From Fistulifera solaris (taxonomy: Eukaryota; Bacillariophyta; Bacillariophyceae; Naviculales; Stauroneidaceae): a stretch of 64,000 nt of DNA. A program made the translations under genes and the position numbers. The DNA lies in the NCBI GenBank assembly GCA_030295235.1, contig AP026130.1:1178001-1242000 (forward strand). Reading direction: 5' to 3'. The notes beneath the pieces are model-generated. The model searched no databases and was not told the origin of the DNA. It saw only the letters and a program-made list of their open reading frames with translations. Positions 6,591 to 47,551 of this stretch are shown piece after piece (within the stretch, counting starts at the first letter, position 1; every line of letters begins with the position of its first letter).

Positions 6591-6716
6591 CATGAAACAT
6601 AATGAGCAACATAATTTACCCTGGTATAGACGCATGGCGGAGTAATTGCAGATTATAAATAATACACTCTCGTCGTTGAAAATTCTTTTTTCTATTGTTG
6701 ATTCATTCGCATCAGA

Positions 6717-8243
6717 ATGAAATTAAGCAGCATCGTTTCTCCCTGCATATTCGTTTTTATTACAGAAACCGCATCTGCTTGGCTTTCCCTGACCACGAGG
6801 CAGAAACGTCATTTTATGGGCTCCTCTTCTACAATCCGCTTCTCGATTCCTTCATCTTCGACTCCCATGTTCCCATCTGCTACGAATAACAAAAATCCGC
6901 TTCCTATTCTACCCATTCCGCCGCCCATTTGTTCGACGGAACCAGGTTCATGGGCGTATGATACCATGAGTCGTCGGGTCGACGCGGAGATTTTGCAGCG
7001 TACCTGGGACGACAATCAAGATCTTTGGGGGCAATGGAGTACGGAGCATATCGATGTCGTACAACGATTTGAGTTATTACGAAACGAGTTACAAAATGCC
7101 GCGGCGACTCCTTTACAGCATTTGGAAGAACCCGTAATTAAATCAGCCGAACGAGAAAAGGAATATCAAGAATGGCAACAAATCTTGGAACCGTACGTTT
7201 CCAACCAAGATACCTGGCTGACGGCACCGTGGATGGTAACAGAATTCTTGATCTATCGGAAGCTCATGCAAGCCATCGGTTACTGGGATCCGAAATCTCC
7301 AGGATATCAGCACGATCCCTTTCTGGCTCAAAAACAAGCTGGATTGCATTCGTCGGTTACTTCGGCGGAATCTGTATTGGCCAAACTTTTTTATCAGACC
7401 CCGGAAGTTCTCCACGAGGAATCGCTAGAAGCTGGTTTGGCACTCGCCACGAGTATTGCTTTGTGGGGCAACAAGATGGATTTGTCGTTGTGGCCCGCCG
7501 ACAAAGAACAGCGCAACAGTGATATCTTTTCCAAGATACTCGAACAAGCCAGTCAGAATTTATTGCACGATGATACACAAGTCCTCCGCCGGCACTGTCA
7601 GATGTTAAAAGAGCGAGGAGGAGGACAAGTGGATATCATTGTTGACAATGCCGGATTCGAACTGGTGACGGATTTAGCTCTCGCTCATTATTTGATCGAA
7701 TCGGGCATTGCAACGACGGTTACGTTTCAACTCAAATCGCATCCGACCTTTGTGTCAGATGCCTTGGAAAAGGATTTGCTGGAAACTGTGGCGTATTACG
7801 AACAGCTGGATCCCGCAGAATTTCCGGCGTGTCACGCGGCCGGTCAAAAATGGCGTCAATTTTTACAAAAGGGTCAATGGAAGTGCCACGAAGACAACTT
7901 CTGGGTGCAACCGTATGCCATGTGGGATATGACCGAACCGTTGCGATCGGATCTGGTCCGGCGCTGTGATTTAGCGTTTGTGAAGGGCGATGCCAATTAC
8001 CGACGTCTTTTGGGCGATCGGACCTGGGACTATACGGCGCCTTTCCAAGATGTAGTGGGAGCTTATTTCCCTTGCCCAGTGTGTGCCTTGCGAACACTCA
8101 AAGCCGAAATTGGTTGTGGTATGGATGCGGAGCAAGTGAAGCGAGCACAAGAACTGGATGATCAGTGGATGGTGAATGGACGATTTGGTGTGGTGCACTT
8201 TGGTAGGGGCACCAATGAGAGAGACCAGCTTTCTAACGCGTAA
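6717..8243 (+). CDS. DUF89/ARMT1-family metal-dependent phosphatase, possibly plastid-targeted
   Basis: Single intact exon, 508 residues. DUF89 marks are SIALWGNKMDLSLW (about residue 250), DIIVDNAGFELVTDLALAH (about 310) and CDLAFVKGDANYRRLLGDRTW (about 425); the Asp/Asn residues of these motifs form the metal site. The family removes phosphate from damaged or overflow metabolites such as fructose-1-phosphate and related sugar phosphates, and the human member is also called ARMT1. The N-terminus is a clean signal peptide (MKLSSIVSPCIFVFITETASA) followed by W and a basic Ser/Thr stretch. ASA-W resembles the diatom ASAFAP plastid-import motif, so plastid targeting is inferred. The stop is 11 bp from that of the opposite-strand gene downstream. 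Confidence 0.85.
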   Translation: MKLSSIVSPCIFVFITETASAWLSLTTRQKRHFMGSSSTIRFSIPSSSTPMFPSATNNKNPLPILPIPPPICSTEPGSWAYDTMSRRVDAEILQRTWDDNQDLWGQWSTEHIDVVQRFELLRNELQNAAATPLQHLEEPVIKSAEREKEYQEWQQILEPYVSNQDTWLTAPWMVTEFLIYRKLMQAIGYWDPKSPGYQHDPFLAQKQAGLHSSVTSAESVLAKLFYQTPEVLHEESLEAGLALATSIALWGNKMDLSLWPADKEQRNSDIFSKILEQASQNLLHDDTQVLRRHCQMLKERGGGQVDIIVDNAGFELVTDLALAHYLIESGIATTVTFQLKSHPTFVSDALEKDLLETVAYYEQLDPAEFPACHAAGQKWRQFLQKGQWKCHEDNFWVQPYAMWDMTEPLRSDLVRRCDLAFVKGDANYRRLLGDRTWDYTAPFQDVVGAYFPCPVCALRTLKAEIGCGMDAEQVKRAQELDDQWMVNGRFGVVHFGRGTNERDQLSNA

Positions 8244-39822: not shown

Positions 39823-40279
39823 GACTCGGTATGACTGCTTTGTCTATTTACGGTGTTTTCACTGATTGATGGCTCAATGTTATGATAGAAGAAAAAGATA
39901 ATGTTGTGACCATTCTTCATTCTTTCAATATTAGAAAGGAAAGAATGAAATACTGGTAATGAAGAAAGCTGGTTGACCCGAAGATCGAAGAACTTTGACG
40001 ATAGCCTCGCGCAATAAGTAAAAAATCCATCCCTGTCGTACCGGTTGCAAATTTTCTTCCCGCGCGGTCATCGCGGTCATCGTCGGTGCAAGGACGAACG
40101 ACGGCACGCAGAAGAAAAACGTCCGCCGCGAATGAATACGAAAAAAGTGAATAGATGCGCTCCTATCTCCTATCCATCATTTGCAGTGCATCTCATAATA
40201 CTCTCTATCATTCAATTGCCGCGATAGATAGTCTCATTGCTTTCTAAACGAACCCATCAGCTTGATAGGAAGAGGCGGA
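39823..40279. promoter_or_regulatory. Divergent promoter region with an 11-bp inverted repeat
   Basis: It separates pirin (minus) from queuine tRNA-ribosyltransferase (plus). TTCATTCTTTC at 39916-39926 and its exact reverse complement GAAAGAATGAA at 39939-39949 form arms with a 12-nt spacer. GCGGTCATC is repeated in tandem near 40066. Both could serve either gene; no evidence decides. Confidence 0.5.
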
Positions 40280-41713
40280 ATGACGACTAGAACAGAACAA
40301 ACGGATGATAATTCATCAAATGATTCGCCATCGAAGCGACCCCGCCCCGAACTATCGCCTCTCTACAATCCCGAAGTGCTTCCCAACGAACTCAAGAATG
40401 TTGACTTTACACAACGCATCACATGGGGCAAGTATGCTCCTTATACGGAAGAAGTCTTGCCGCTGAAAGCTCTGGATGCACCAGCGACTCCGAAGCACCG
40501 ACTGGAAATGCATATACACAATTTGTCGAATCGAGCACGCGCGGGCACCATTCATTTACAACGACCATCATCACGGCCTATTCCTACACCCATGTTCATG
40601 CCGGTGGGTACAAAAGGGTGTTTGAAAGGTGTCACCATTGATGAATTGATGCATTGTTTGGACTGTCCCATCATTCTAGGAAATACGTATCATCTCGCCA
40701 TTCAACCGGGGACCGAACTCATTCGCGAGCAAGGTCAATTGCGAAAGTTTCAAGGAAATGGGAATCATAATTTGCTCACGGATTCGGGAGGGTTTCAAAT
40801 GGTATCGCTTTCGAAGTTATCGAATATTTCGGAAGAGGGAGTCACCTTTGAGAATCCATTCGCCAAAGGCGAAACGATGTTACTCAAACCAGAAGATTCC
40901 ATACGTCATCAAACCAACATTGGGGCAGATATTATCATGGCTTTGGATGATGTTGTCAGTAGTGTGATTGCTGATCATGATCGGTTTCGGGAGGCAACGT
41001 ACCGTACGCTGCGTTGGTACGATCGATGCCTACAAGCCAAGGCCGAAGGTGATCCGGATCATCAACAGAATCTTTTCCCCATCGTTCAAGGTGGACTAGA
41101 TACGCAGTTGGGTGGTTTGCGAGAACAGTGCCTGGCAGGATTCCGGAACCGCGATCAAGATGTAGCGGGATTCGCCATTGGAGGATTGGCGGGAGGTGAG
41201 TCGAAAGATGACTTTTGGAGAGTCGTCAATCAGTGTTGCAAAGCACTGCCCGATGACCGACCACGCTATTTGATGGGAGTGGGCTATCCACTTGACTTGG
41301 TTGTGTGTACCGCACTTGGGGTCGACATGTACGATTGTGTTTATCCAACGCGCACAGCGCGCTTCGGTGTTGCTTTAATCAATGATGGAACTTGTAAGCT
41401 CAAAGCCCAAGCGTGTGCAACGGATTTTCGGGTCATTCAAGAGAACTGTAAATGTCAGGCCTGTCAACTAGGAATCACTCGATCGCGGTTGCACTTCATG
41501 TACAAGACGGGGAATCCGGTTGCGGTGCAGTTGTTGACGCAACACAATCTGACTTACATGATGCAATTGGTGGGTGATATGCGAAACGCTATACTGGAGA
41601 ACCGATATCCGACATATGCACGAGCATTTGTTAAAAATATGTTTGCCGAGGAAGCAGTACCTGGTTGGGTGGTAGATGCATTAAACGAAGCTGGAATCTC
41701 GTTGCAGGAGTAA
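40280..41713 (+). CDS. QTRT1: Queuine tRNA-ribosyltransferase catalytic subunit (eukaryotic TGT)
   Basis: Single intact exon, 477 residues. It swaps guanine-34 of tRNAs with GUN anticodons for queuine. Marks: MFMPVGTKGCLKG, CPIILGNTYHLAIQPG, LLTDSGGFQMVSLS (active-site Asp), FPIVQGG, GFAIGGLAGGE, LDLVVCTALGVDMYDCVYPT then RTARFG (nucleophile Asp) and the zinc site CKCQACQLG with the later His in RLHF. The N-terminal ~70 residues are charged (SPSKRPRPELS) and not part of the barrel. The usual partner QTRT2 is not in this window. Diatoms cannot be assumed to make queuine, so salvage is likely. Confidence 0.95.
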   Translation: MTTRTEQTDDNSSNDSPSKRPRPELSPLYNPEVLPNELKNVDFTQRITWGKYAPYTEEVLPLKALDAPATPKHRLEMHIHNLSNRARAGTIHLQRPSSRPIPTPMFMPVGTKGCLKGVTIDELMHCLDCPIILGNTYHLAIQPGTELIREQGQLRKFQGNGNHNLLTDSGGFQMVSLSKLSNISEEGVTFENPFAKGETMLLKPEDSIRHQTNIGADIIMALDDVVSSVIADHDRFREATYRTLRWYDRCLQAKAEGDPDHQQNLFPIVQGGLDTQLGGLREQCLAGFRNRDQDVAGFAIGGLAGGESKDDFWRVVNQCCKALPDDRPRYLMGVGYPLDLVVCTALGVDMYDCVYPTRTARFGVALINDGTCKLKAQACATDFRVIQENCKCQACQLGITRSRLHFMYKTGNPVAVQLLTQHNLTYMMQLVGDMRNAILENRYPTYARAFVKNMFAEEAVPGWVVDALNEAGISLQE

Positions 41714-41808: not shown

Positions 41809-43038
41809 CTATTGACTTTCGGCTTCGACTGCCTTGTGCGGGCCATCGTATACTGAGAAATCAGTGTATCCTTTGGCACCAGTGGGAGCATACCAGGTCT
41901 CGTAAGCGGCCTCGGGCTCCAAAGGCCAATTGTGCGTGAAACGCTCCACGAGGTCAGGGTTCGAAATGTACAAGCGACCAAACGCGCAGAGATCCGCGGC
42001 ACCCGAGCGGACCATTCCCTCGGCCGTGTCTTTGTTCAAACCGACGTTGCACATAATGGGACCGTCGAATACTTTACGAAAGTCAGCGACAGTGACGACC
42101 TTGCATTTGTTGTGGAATCCGAAACCAAGTCCATCCATGACGTGCAAGTAGGCAGGCTTGTATTCGTTCATGACCTTGGCAAAATAAGGGAACGCAACAT
42201 CGTTGTCTTCACTGCCCATGTCTCCAAAAGACACCGTTGGGCGAAAAGCGGAAACCAATACGGTTGGCCGGGTACGCACCACTTTCCACAATGGCCTCAA
42301 AGATTTCCTTCAAAATACGAATTCGGTTATCAAGACTGCCTCCGTAGTTGTCCGTGCGTTTATTGGTGGAAGACTGAAGGAACGTATCAATGAGGTAACC
42401 GTTGGCTGCGTGAATTTCAATTCCGTCGAAACCGGCTTCTTTCGCGAGCTTGGCGGCATTGACGTAGTCGGCAATCGTCGCCTTGATCTCGTCGACGGTC
42501 AACTCCGAAGGAACTTCGGCTTCCGCATCTTCACCATTGATGGTTCGGACCTTGACACCGGACATGGCGATCGGCGACGGAGCGAAAGTCTTGTTGGTGG
42601 ACGGATGGTGAGAAGAGTGTGACTGACGACCCATATGCCAAAATTGCATAAAGATGATTCCTTCTTTCGCATGAACGGCATCGACTACCTTCTTCCATCC
42701 TTCCACATTCTCCGGGAAACGAATGTGGGGGCGTTGCGCCAGCCACAGCCGGCCTCCGATATGGCCGTAGCTTCGGTGATAAGCAAACCGCCTGAAGCAC
42801 GCTGGGTGTAGTATTCGACCATGAGATCATTGGGAGTAGTGCACACAACATCAAAAGGATTTTCGGTAGGAGTGCATCTGGAAGATTCACAAGATCGCGA
42901 GCGAGTTACTTAGATGCTGGCTCGTTCACAAGATAGAAACGACGTTTCAATGACTTACCGACCACGCGTCAAAGGAGCAAGAACGACACGGTTCTTGAGC
43001 TCAAGGTCTCCGATAGTGAATTTGGATAGAAGCTGCAT
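41809..43038 (-). CDS. Old-yellow-enzyme family NADH:flavin oxidoreductase, 2 exons; two homopolymer frame breaks
   Basis: Exon 1 (43038-42959) encodes MQLLSKFTIGDLELKNRVVL then APLTRG. An 81-bp intron (GTAAGT..TTCCAG) leads to exon 2. FMN-binding and catalytic marks: ITEATAISEAG, FMQFWHMGRQSH, FDGIEIHAANGYLIDTFLQS, NKRTDNYGGSLDNR, RFSPNGVFGDMG and CAFGRLYISNPDL. These match 12-oxophytodienoate and enoate reductases, which reduce electrophilic C=C bonds. The C5 run (coding strand) at 42731-42727 is one base short and T4 at 42229-42226 one too long. Corrected, it has 382 residues, the normal family length. No peroxisomal end is present (VEAESQ). Confidence 0.92.
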
Positions 43039-45329: not shown

Positions 45330-47551
45330 ATGAATGAGCCGAATCCCAAGCGACCGAAAACAACGTCTCAGTCGTCACTGTCGTCTTTCTTTACAATAAA
45401 AACAACCGTACAAAAGGAGACGCAAACAAAGGACAAAGACGTATCTTCTTCTCAAAAAATCGATACATCGTCAAATGAACCCATTATTCCTCGGAGTGTC
45501 CCTGCCTCGTTAAAGGCAACATGGAATGTTTATCAGAATGCTTGTATTTACCGAAAAGTGAGAGGAGAAGTGAATGAGAGAACCAAACTAGCGGCGTTTG
45601 ATTTAGATGGCACTCTGTTAACATGGCGAATTGACGGCTGGCCGAGTAAGTTCGAACACTACGAGTTGTGGAATGCTACCGTCATTGACAGGCTTCGTCG
45701 ATTGTATGATGAAGAAGACTATCGGCTGGTTGTATTCAGTAATCAAGGATTGATACGACAAGCTTTCACGGGTGTGAAAGCGACGTTTGTCAAGTCGCTG
45801 CTCGAGTGGTTCGCGAATCTGCTCGATCGTCCTCTTTCCGTGGTCTTGTCGACAAGCAAAAGAATGGCTTTCATAAGCCTTCTCACAAAATGTGGAACGT
45901 AGCGGAAGAATGTTGTTTTGGTGGACGCACTATGGATGTTTCTTCCAGTTTCTTCGTCGGGGACAGTATTGGAGGCGATGATGATCCACAAGGAGGCGTG
46001 GACATTGGCTTTGCTCGTGCAGTGGGGGAACACCGAAATGCGAACTTACGCTTCTACAGCCCGACTGAGTTCTTCGGACCGAGTTCGAAGCAAAAGCGCG
46101 ACAAAGGGAAGGTTGCAGTGACTTACGAGAAGCCTCCAGCTGCAGTGCTTCAGACGAGGGCTGCACTTGTCAGTGGCTATCTGGAAGGACCAATCATGCT
46201 TATTCTATGTGGAGCACAAGGGTCTGGTAAAAAGTACATTTTGTGACAAATTACTAGGGAAGAATGATGCATGGGTCCATCTATCACAAGACACCATCAA
46301 CAATGGAAAACCGGGAAAACGAGAAATGGTGGAAGAAACAGCCGAGAAAGAACTCCGTGCAGGACGATGTATTGTCGTGGATCGCATGCATCTGGATGAG
46401 ACACAGCGTTCGGTATTCGTAAGTACAGCGAAGCGGGTAAATGTACCGGTTCATGCGCTGGTCCTATCAACTTCAACGTCTCTCCTAGCGTCCCGGGTGA
46501 AACGCCGATCAAATCATCCTGCTGGTGTTGAGGGCGAAAAAGGAGTGAAAGTTGCGATGATATCAGCATCCAAAATGGTTATGCCGACGTATACGGAAGG
46601 CTTTGCATTGATTAGCGTTACAGCGACAGAGCAAGGCGTAGCTCGATTTGTTGACCAATACAGCAAAATTTCGACGGCAGAACCGAATACGACTTCGATA
46701 CTGAAACAGTTTGATCTCCCGCAAATTAATATCCCATCCGTTATATTAGGAACGATGAAAATGGGCAGGAAAAGTGCTGCAGAGATTGTATCGAAGGCCA
46801 GATCGTTGGGATTCGCAGGCGTTGATACTGCGCCAACTTACAACAACGAGATAGAGGTTGGTCGAGGAATGGATAATGATATGTTTTGTGTGGTCAAAGT
46901 GCCGAAGCGCGCATCGACTGCTGAGGATGTGCAAAAGAGCTATGCAATAGTCTTTCAAGCTTGGGGCGAAAGCAAGCTGACCTTCTATTACTGCATTGGC
47001 CATCGGATTCTGAAACACTAAAATCTGTTTGGCAAGGAATGGAGACTTGTGTCAAAGAAGGATTTGTTAAGGCTCTTGGGGTCTGCAACTTTAGTGCTAA
47101 GGCTTTGGCAGGACTAATACCAATGTGCTCGATTACCCCGTGCATCAATCAAGTGGAACGCCATCCTTTCCTTCCGCAATGGGATCTTGTCGACTTTTGT
47201 GCACAGAACGACATTTTGCTGCAGGCTCACACACCTTTGGGTCAAGGCAATAACGATCTCTGGGAAGATCCAAGTGTGCAACAAGTGGTGGCATCGACCG
47301 GTCTCTCGCCTGCAAAGGTTTTGCTTCTTTGGAATCTTCAACAAGGGGTAGCTGTGGTGCCAAGATGTAGCTCAGAAGAACATTTGGCCGATATTATGGA
47401 ACTCTTCAAAACAGCAGCGTCTAGCGAGGCCTTATTAATCGCAGACGATTTGATGGAATTGAACGGCATTAGTCGTACGTGCAGGTTTATTGCGCCGCCC
47501 TTCATGTTTGGTTCTTCGAGTTACTGCTGGGCGACGAATGCGAACAAGTAG
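45330..47551 (+). CDS. Polynucleotide 3'-phosphatase/5'-kinase fused to an aldo-keto reductase; three homopolymer frame breaks
   Basis: Reading in order: PKRPK (basic, NLS-like), QSSLSSFF at residues 14-21 (an exact PIP box, Qxx(L)xx(F)(F), for PCNA binding), then a PNKP-type HAD phosphatase (AAFDLDGTLLTWRIDGWPSK, VVFSNQG, KPSHKMWN, FFVGDS). Next is a P-loop kinase (LILCGAQGSGKST at ~296, VDRMHLDETQR). Last is a full aldo-keto reductase (~460-740: GVDTAPTYNNEIEVG, VVKVPK, LLLLHWPSD, GVCNFSAKAL, INQVERHPFLPQ). The four AKR catalytic residues (Asp, Tyr, Lys, His) are visible. A4 at 45858-45861 is one short, A5 at 46229-46233 one long and A4 at 46933-46936 one short. Corrected, a single frame of 740 residues runs from ATG to TAG. 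PNKP mends damaged DNA ends; the AKR role is unknown. Confidence 0.85.

What the first reader, a model, noticed from the sequence alone, without database searches (positions are those of the whole stretch)
45330..47551. One protein combining PCNA-binding motif, DNA 3'-phosphatase, 5'-kinase and aldo-keto reductase
After allowing for three single-base homopolymer errors, one 740-codon frame carries a PIP box (QSSLSSFF), the PNKP phosphatase and kinase domains, and a complete aldo-keto reductase with its Asp/Tyr/Lys/His residues visible. I know of no characterised PNKP with an AKR domain. An AKR next to an end-healing enzyme could detoxify aldehydes at broken DNA ends (oxidative breaks leave base propenals or phosphoglycolates) or serve as a redox sensor; both are guesses. 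The PIP box would tie it to replication forks.
Basis: partly seen in the sequence, partly recalled or inferred. Interest (0 to 1): 0.8.

Follow-up and report, generated by a model that had tools for sequence, protein, structure and literature searches.

The report
Diatom DNA-end repair enzyme with reductase
Diatoms carry a conserved protein that joins two DNA-end-repair enzymes to an aldehyde-reducing enzyme whose catalytic residues are all kept, which suggests, but does not yet prove, that they reduce reactive aldehydes where DNA breaks are mended.

Summary
Window 45330-47551 encodes one interrupted 740-residue protein: PIP box, DNA 3'-phosphatase, 5'-kinase and aldo-keto reductase (AKR). The join is real. 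P0001 (740 aa, 95% identical) is uninterrupted, and 119 of the 120 listed matches carry all three Pfam domains in one protein; those with names are pennate and centric diatoms, and three come from transcriptomes. Phaeodactylum tricornutum very probably has it.

The AKR catalytic tetrad is invariant in 119 of 119 fusions. A four-residue signature in the cofactor and substrate site occurs in 112 of 118 fusions and 0 of 43 ordinary AKRs.

The kinase is not the PNKP kinase: it lies with aprataxin/bHLH140 kinases across a 100/100 branch. So this is not simply PNKP plus an AKR. The PIP box is in 75 of 95 testable fusions and missing on the Thalassiosirales and Attheya side.

A twist: the genome's second copy has two in-frame stops at the AKR start, and a GenBank Fistulifera solaris protein ends there.

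Most likely it is an active NAD(P)H-dependent aldehyde reductase tethered to DNA-end healing; substrate unproven. Main rival: a redox-sensing domain.

The parts
45330..47551 (+). whole coding region of the phosphatase-kinase-AKR fusion (740 codons plus stop, read over three frame changes)
   Evidence: uninterrupted relative P0001
45369..45392 (+). PIP-box motif QSSLSSFF; N-terminus disordered in the model of P0001 (pLDDT mostly under 50 for residues 1-40)
   Evidence: also in the homeologous copy
45585..46075 (+). PNK3P (DNA 3'-phosphatase) domain with DLDGT motif; crosses the first frame change near 45.86 kb
   Evidence: Pfam PF08645; conserved Asp residues
46196..46680 (+). P-loop 5'-kinase domain (AAA_33), aprataxin/bHLH140 type; crosses the second frame change near 46.23 kb in the Walker A motif
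46681..46724 (+). short linker between kinase and AKR, same open frame as both neighbours
   Evidence: (ORF 46122-47021)
46725..47548 (+). aldo-keto reductase domain; crosses the third frame change near 46.94 kb
46824..46826 (+). AKR catalytic Asp (D499 of P0001)
   Evidence: 119 of 119
46839..46841 (+). AKR catalytic Tyr (Y504 of P0001)
   Evidence: 119 of 119
46896..46898 (+). AKR catalytic Lys (K523 of P0001), followed by the family-specific V/I-P-K
   Evidence: 119 of 119; signature
46994..46996 (+). AKR catalytic His (H556 of P0001)
   Evidence: 119 of 119
47159..47161 (+). family-specific Arg in NQxERHP (R611 of P0001)
   Evidence: 118 of 118 fusions, 4 of 43 ordinary AKRs
47228..47230 (+). 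family-specific His at the nicotinamide-stacking position (H634 of P0001)
   Evidence: 116 of 118 fusions, 0 of 43 ordinary AKRs
47381..47383 (+). His in place of the Arg of the NADPH 2'-phosphate site (H685 of P0001)
   Evidence: 114 of 118 fusions, 4 of 43 ordinary AKRs; alignment to 1m9h

Best explanation
Shown: diatoms encode one protein that joins a DNA 3'-phosphatase domain, an aprataxin/bHLH140-type P-loop kinase domain and a distinctive AKR with an intact catalytic tetrad, often with an N-terminal basic cluster and PIP box. Inferred: it is an end-healing enzyme of the nucleus. The phosphatase removes 3'-phosphates and the kinase phosphorylates 5'-OH ends. The tethered AKR uses NAD(P)H to reduce reactive aldehydes made where DNA is broken oxidatively (aldehydic sugar ends, base propenals, small dicarbonyls), so that the end can be ligated or so that the aldehyde does not crosslink repair proteins. 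Where the PIP box is present, PCNA would bring the enzyme to replication or gap-filling sites.
Against: No activity, substrate or localisation data exist here. A conserved tetrad could also be kept in an AKR used as a redox sensor. Parts of the NADPH 2'-phosphate site are altered (Arg to His, Asn mostly to aliphatic residues). One of the two copies in this genome has lost its AKR yet kept phosphatase and kinase, so the AKR is dispensable in one copy. P0123 and P0124 lack a detectable AKR after a complete kinase, as do P0130, P0131, P0135, P0136 and P0138; truncated or frame-shifted models cannot be excluded. The PIP box is missing in 20 of 95, among them Thalassiosirales, Attheya and Nitzschia inconspicua.
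Confidence: 0.45

Rival explanations
1. The AKR is a redox sensor: it binds NAD(P)H tightly and its redox state switches the phosphatase or kinase on or off, as the AKR-type beta subunits of potassium channels do (precedent recalled).
For: Unusual cofactor site with conserved His at the stacking position and at the 2'-phosphate position; short linker to the kinase in the open frame; domains that evolve together.
Against: Substrate-pocket residues are also conserved in a family-specific way, and the tetrad is 119 of 119, which a pure sensor would not strictly need; phosphatase and kinase persist without the AKR in one copy.
Confidence: 0.25
2. The AKR works on an unrelated small metabolite and is tethered only for shared location or dosage; the fusion has no mechanistic link to DNA ends.
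For: Sequence is closest to ordinary 2,5-diketogluconate reductase-like AKRs; one copy lost the AKR without losing the rest.
Against: The tether is kept across pennates and centrics with a distinct AKR clade (SH-aLRT 100).
Confidence: 0.22
3. The AKR is catalytically dead and serves as a structural or protein-binding platform.
For: Partly changed cofactor site; conserved C-terminal tail RFVAPPFM...W could be a docking surface.
Against: All four catalytic residues invariant.
Confidence: 0.06
4. The join is an artefact of assembly or of missed frame errors, and two genes lie side by side.
For: Three frame changes in the window, two of them shared by the homeologue.
Against: Kinase and AKR share one open frame in window and homeologue; uninterrupted proteins from many sources, three of them transcriptome-derived (P0049, P0078, P0097).
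Confidence: 0.02

Closest known systems
Eukaryotic PNKP (polynucleotide kinase 3'-phosphatase; 1yj5, 3zvl, 3u7e)
   Same: PNK3P phosphatase followed by a P-loop kinase; sequence match to 1yj5 at 5.3e-20 over 300 residues; Foldseek match 3u7e at 4e-20
   Different: Kinase belongs to another clade; no FHA domain found in the 8 proteins scanned with Pfam; AKR added; TIGR01663 score 96.9 against its cut-off of 502.8
Kinase domain of plant and green-algal aprataxin/bHLH140 proteins
   Same: 37-42% identity over the kinase; same side of a 100/100 branch; 133-145 bits with the diatom kinase profile against 27-58 for PNKP kinases
   Different: Joined to a 3'-phosphatase and AKR instead of the aprataxin HIT and zinc-finger parts (Pfam labels)
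AKR superfamily, 2,5-diketogluconate reductase / YvgN-like enzymes (2wzm, 3f7j, 1m9h)
   Different: R/H/H/P signature 112 of 118 against 0 of 43; a pocket Trp replaced, mostly by Met (95 of 118); 133.4 bits against the DkgA cut-off of 425
Proteins pairing PNK3P with an aprataxin-type kinase but without AKR (P0165, P0145; taxon not given)
   Same: Same phosphatase-kinase pairing; kinase on the same side of the 100/100 branch
   Different: No AKR match; P0145 carries UBA domains, P0165 has a Cys-containing insert between the domains (sequence)

Membership tests
PNKP (eukaryotic) | PNK3P phosphatase with DxD motif | tested here: met
   PF08645 77.4 bits in P0001; first Asp 113 of 119, second 106 of 119 (4 and 5 rows have a gap there)
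PNKP (eukaryotic) | kinase domain of the PNKP clade | tested here: not met
   23 PNKP kinases on the other side of a 100/100 branch (53 rows chosen by me, 21 of them fusion-type)
PNKP (eukaryotic) | N-terminal FHA domain (animal PNKP) | tested here: not met
   no such Pfam match in 8 proteins; N-terminus of P0001 disordered in the model
PNKP (eukaryotic) | 3'-phosphatase and 5'-kinase activity on DNA | not testable with these tools
   needs protein
AKR superfamily | barrel fold and PF00248 over the cut-off | tested here: met
AKR superfamily | catalytic tetrad Asp/Tyr/Lys/His | tested here: met
   119 of 119 at each position
AKR superfamily | usual NADPH site (Lys, Arg, Asn of the 2'-phosphate region; stacking Tyr/Trp); not shared by every AKR | tested here: not met
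   Lys kept in 112 of 118; Arg to His in 114 of 118; Asn replaced by I/L/V/A/M in 107 of 118 (the other 11 not listed); stacking residue His in 116 of 118
2,5-diketogluconate reductase (DkgA) | NCBIfam equivalog cut-off | tested here: not met
   133.4 against 425
Aprataxin/bHLH140 | aprataxin-type kinase | tested here: met
Aprataxin/bHLH140 | HIT hydrolase and C2HE zinc finger | tested here: not met
   no such Pfam label on the 120 proteins nor in the 8 scanned
PCNA-binding (PIP-box) proteins | Q-x-x-hydrophobic-x-x-aromatic-aromatic motif in a disordered region | tested here: met
   window, homeologue and 75 of 95 testable fusions
PCNA-binding (PIP-box) proteins | binds PCNA | not testable with these tools
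   needs pull-down or binding assay

The most novel reading that the evidence does not exclude
A reductase that heals DNA ends: the AKR reduces aldehydic 3' or 5' sugar remnants still attached to DNA, using a pocket in which large Trp residues are replaced and an invariant Arg and a near-invariant His are added to take phosphate-bearing ends, and hands the end to the phosphatase and kinase of the same polypeptide. As far as I know (recalled, not searched exhaustively) no DNA-end-processing enzyme is a carbonyl reductase.
Probability: 0.22. Interest if true: 0.9.

Novelty: new variant of a known kind. Interest (0 to 1): 0.66.

Why it matters
Oxidative DNA breaks leave aldehydes, and whether cells reduce them in place is open. 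A conserved fusion of a reductase with intact catalytic residues and two end-healing domains, apparently present in the genetically tractable Phaeodactylum tricornutum, makes that directly testable. It also shows that the PNKP-like phosphatase can be paired with a different kinase lineage, so naming the diatom protein PNKP or DNA 3'-phosphatase misses two of its three parts.

Tried and rejected
Artefactual join: rejected.

Chance PIP motif: rejected by shuffles (80 of 108 against mean 0.28; that count includes P0002, and rows without a found DxDGT motif were judged on their first 120 residues; stricter recount without P0002, 75 of 95). A relaxed K/M-type motif adds one of the other 20, the Phaeodactylum-like P0088.

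Programmed frameshifting at the first and third sites, because both homeologues share them without an indel: set aside, because P0001 is uninterrupted and P0002 reads through the first site. Transcripts of this species were not available.

Search for aprataxin's zinc finger in the genome gave nothing, but no control genome rang, so it says nothing. Two other AAA_33 kinases in tandem on C9 are related; no phosphatase or AKR profile matched in the stretches read.

Standalone form of this AKR: not settled. Pfam lists 63 AKR matches in the genome, but the specific search did not complete; a tree with four of those loci put them far away. Among the public AKR hits (120 of 546 listed) most rows of this clade show a piece of the kinase or begin inside the AKR, but a few (P0258, P0294, P0302) have 59-87 residues before the AKR without a kinase match.

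VIA-align listed only AKR chains, so it does not test the kinase or phosphatase folds.

Papers: searches gave listings only, none on this protein; two searches gave passages on the allodiploid F. solaris genome. That 1m9h is an engineered NADH-using mutant is recalled; only its sequence alignment was seen.

Full report
WHAT IS THERE. The window lies in a 51.7-Mb genome of 61 contigs. Window 45330-47551 holds four overlapping open pieces that together spell a 740-residue protein. Pfam gives PNK3P, AAA_33 and Aldo_ket_red in that order. The kinase and the first part of the AKR lie in the same open frame (46122-47021), so the crucial junction does not depend on any correction. PNK3P occurs at two places in the genome: here and at a syntenic copy on contig C12, 88% identical over 2423 aligned bases.

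FRAME CHANGES. The second change (near 46.23 kb) is absent from the C12 copy. The first and third are shared by both copies with no indel between them. P0001, a 95%-identical protein from NCBI and JGI sources, is uninterrupted over 740 residues. P0002, annotated as Fistulifera solaris bifunctional polynucleotide phosphatase/kinase, matches the C12 copy almost exactly and reads through the first site. One-base differences in short A/T runs also separate the homeologous copies of two neighbouring genes. Assembly error is the simplest reading. No reads or transcripts of this species could be checked.

ORGANISM. The near-exact match of P0002 points to F. solaris or a close relative; Fistulifera is a diatom of the class Bacillariophyceae. 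F. solaris is described as allodiploid in passages of two papers (PMC7335047; PMC7859220), which fits the two syntenic copies. That this assembly is F. solaris is inference.

THE FUSION IS FOUND ACROSS DIATOMS. Of 170 hits, 120 were listed; 119 of these carry PNK3P, AAA_33 and AKR in one protein of 574-1196 residues. The search admits lengths of about 407-1295 only, which favours fusions. Named members include Amphora, Cylindrotheca, Epithemia, Mayamaea, Nitzschia, Pseudo-nitzschia, Attheya, Stephanocyclus and Conticribra; most rows are unnamed. Three are MMETSP transcriptome proteins marked complete (P0049, P0078, P0097). A partial P. tricornutum AKR (P0267) is identical at 229 of 230 residues to part of P0088, an 874-residue fusion, so this model diatom almost certainly has it. 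A search with the phosphatase-kinase core, limited to shorter proteins, returned complete kinases without an AKR match (P0123, P0124, P0130, P0131, P0135, P0136, P0138). Of those whose sequence I looked at, P0124, P0130 and P0136 look truncated or frame-shifted; real losses cannot be excluded.

THE KINASE. The diatom kinases lie with plant and green-algal aprataxin/bHLH140 kinases on one side of a 100/100 branch, and 23 PNKP kinases on the other (53 rows chosen by me). With a profile of the diatom kinases, aprataxin-type kinases score 133-145 bits and PNKP kinases 27-58. By sequence the nearest solved structures are two small P-loop kinases (9drz; 9d8a, named Rhizopus azygosporus kinase), ahead of PNKP. 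In the phosphatase tree the 23 PNKP rows form a group at 100/98 that excludes the fusions. Two proteins of unstated taxon (P0145, P0165) pair the same kinase type with PNK3P but lack an AKR match, so the AKR was probably added to an existing phosphatase-kinase pair (inference).

PIP BOX. It is present in 75 of 95 fusions with a testable N-terminus, with a basic cluster within 30 residues upstream in 65 of those 75. Its presence needs only four changes on a tree of the 119 fusions, against 18.4 for shuffled labels. It is missing in the Thalassiosirales (Conticribra, Stephanocyclus) and Attheya rows and their neighbours, and in three scattered rows including the pennate Nitzschia inconspicua. 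P. tricornutum-like P0088 has a relaxed K-type motif only. The model shows the first 40 residues of P0001 as largely disordered.

SELECTION. Between the two copies dN/dS is 0.20 in the N-terminus, 0.09 in both phosphatase stretches, 0.23 in the kinase and 0.28 and 0.19 in the two AKR stretches (the two stop codons of the C12 copy were skipped). Distances of the three domains across the 119 fusions correlate at 0.51-0.60, against at most 0.14 with permuted rows. The domains have evolved together.

A NATURAL TRUNCATION. The C12 copy carries two adjacent in-frame stop codons, made by substitutions, early in the AKR, and P0002 ends exactly there at 491 residues. One subgenome thus encodes the phosphatase-kinase without the AKR. 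This argues for modularity and against an AKR that is structurally needed by the rest; it also weakens any claim that every copy needs the AKR.

MECHANISM. Shown: architecture, conservation, invariant catalytic residues, remodelled cofactor and substrate site. Inferred: nuclear location, 3'-phosphatase and 5'-kinase activity, reductase activity, and the link to aldehydes at breaks. I put the active-reductase reading at 0.45, a redox sensor at 0.25, an unrelated metabolite at 0.22.

NOVELTY. None of the papers listed (0 papers; 1; 12 of 28 listed; 3) is on a PNKP-AKR protein or on diatom PNKP (open-licence full texts only). JGI names many of these proteins DNA 3'-phosphatase and one methylglyoxal/glyoxal reductase, so the architecture sits in databases under single-domain names.

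Noticed in passing
L005:5236-5241 (contig C12): Homeologous copy has two adjacent in-frame stops early in the AKR; GenBank F. solaris protein P0002 ends at the same residue, so one subgenome encodes the phosphatase-kinase alone.
   Followed up: yes
window 42212-42826 (-) and L005:221-1234 (-): NADH:flavin oxidoreductase (OYE-like) gene: a 205-residue open piece in the window against 338 residues in the homeologue; a one-base difference in an A-run near 42226.
   Followed up: partly
window 6702-8240 (+): 513-residue open frame with an ARMT1-like damage-control phosphatase domain (PF01937, 208 bits).
   Followed up: no
window 40232-41710 (+): 493-residue open frame for a queuine tRNA-ribosyltransferase (PF01702, 412 bits).
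   Followed up: no
genome C9:565724-567211 (L012, L015): Two tandem small AAA_33 kinases, 76 and 74 bits with the fusion kinase profile; possible stand-alone relatives of the kinase domain.
   Followed up: partly
P0137 and P0303: A partial AKR named Pavlovales sp. (haptophyte) carries the same AKR signature and falls in the fusion clade beside P0137, a kinase-AKR protein of unstated origin: the fusion may reach beyond diatoms.
   Followed up: partly
P0165 and P0145: Proteins pairing PNK3P with the aprataxin-type kinase but without AKR; P0145 ends in UBA domains, P0165 has a Cys-containing insert between the domains. Taxa not given.
   Followed up: partly
P0084, P0085, P0092, P0093, P0096, P0100, P0103, P0107, P0113, P0117, P0118: Fusions on the Thalassiosirales side have about 297-522 residues before the phosphatase motif, with no Pfam match there in the four scanned (P0084, P0092, P0100, P0107) and no PIP box.
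   Followed up: partly
fusion C-terminus, e.g. window 47480-47548: The tail RFVAPPFM...Y-x-W is strongly conserved in fusions, less so in ordinary AKRs; it could be a docking or specificity element.
   Followed up: partly
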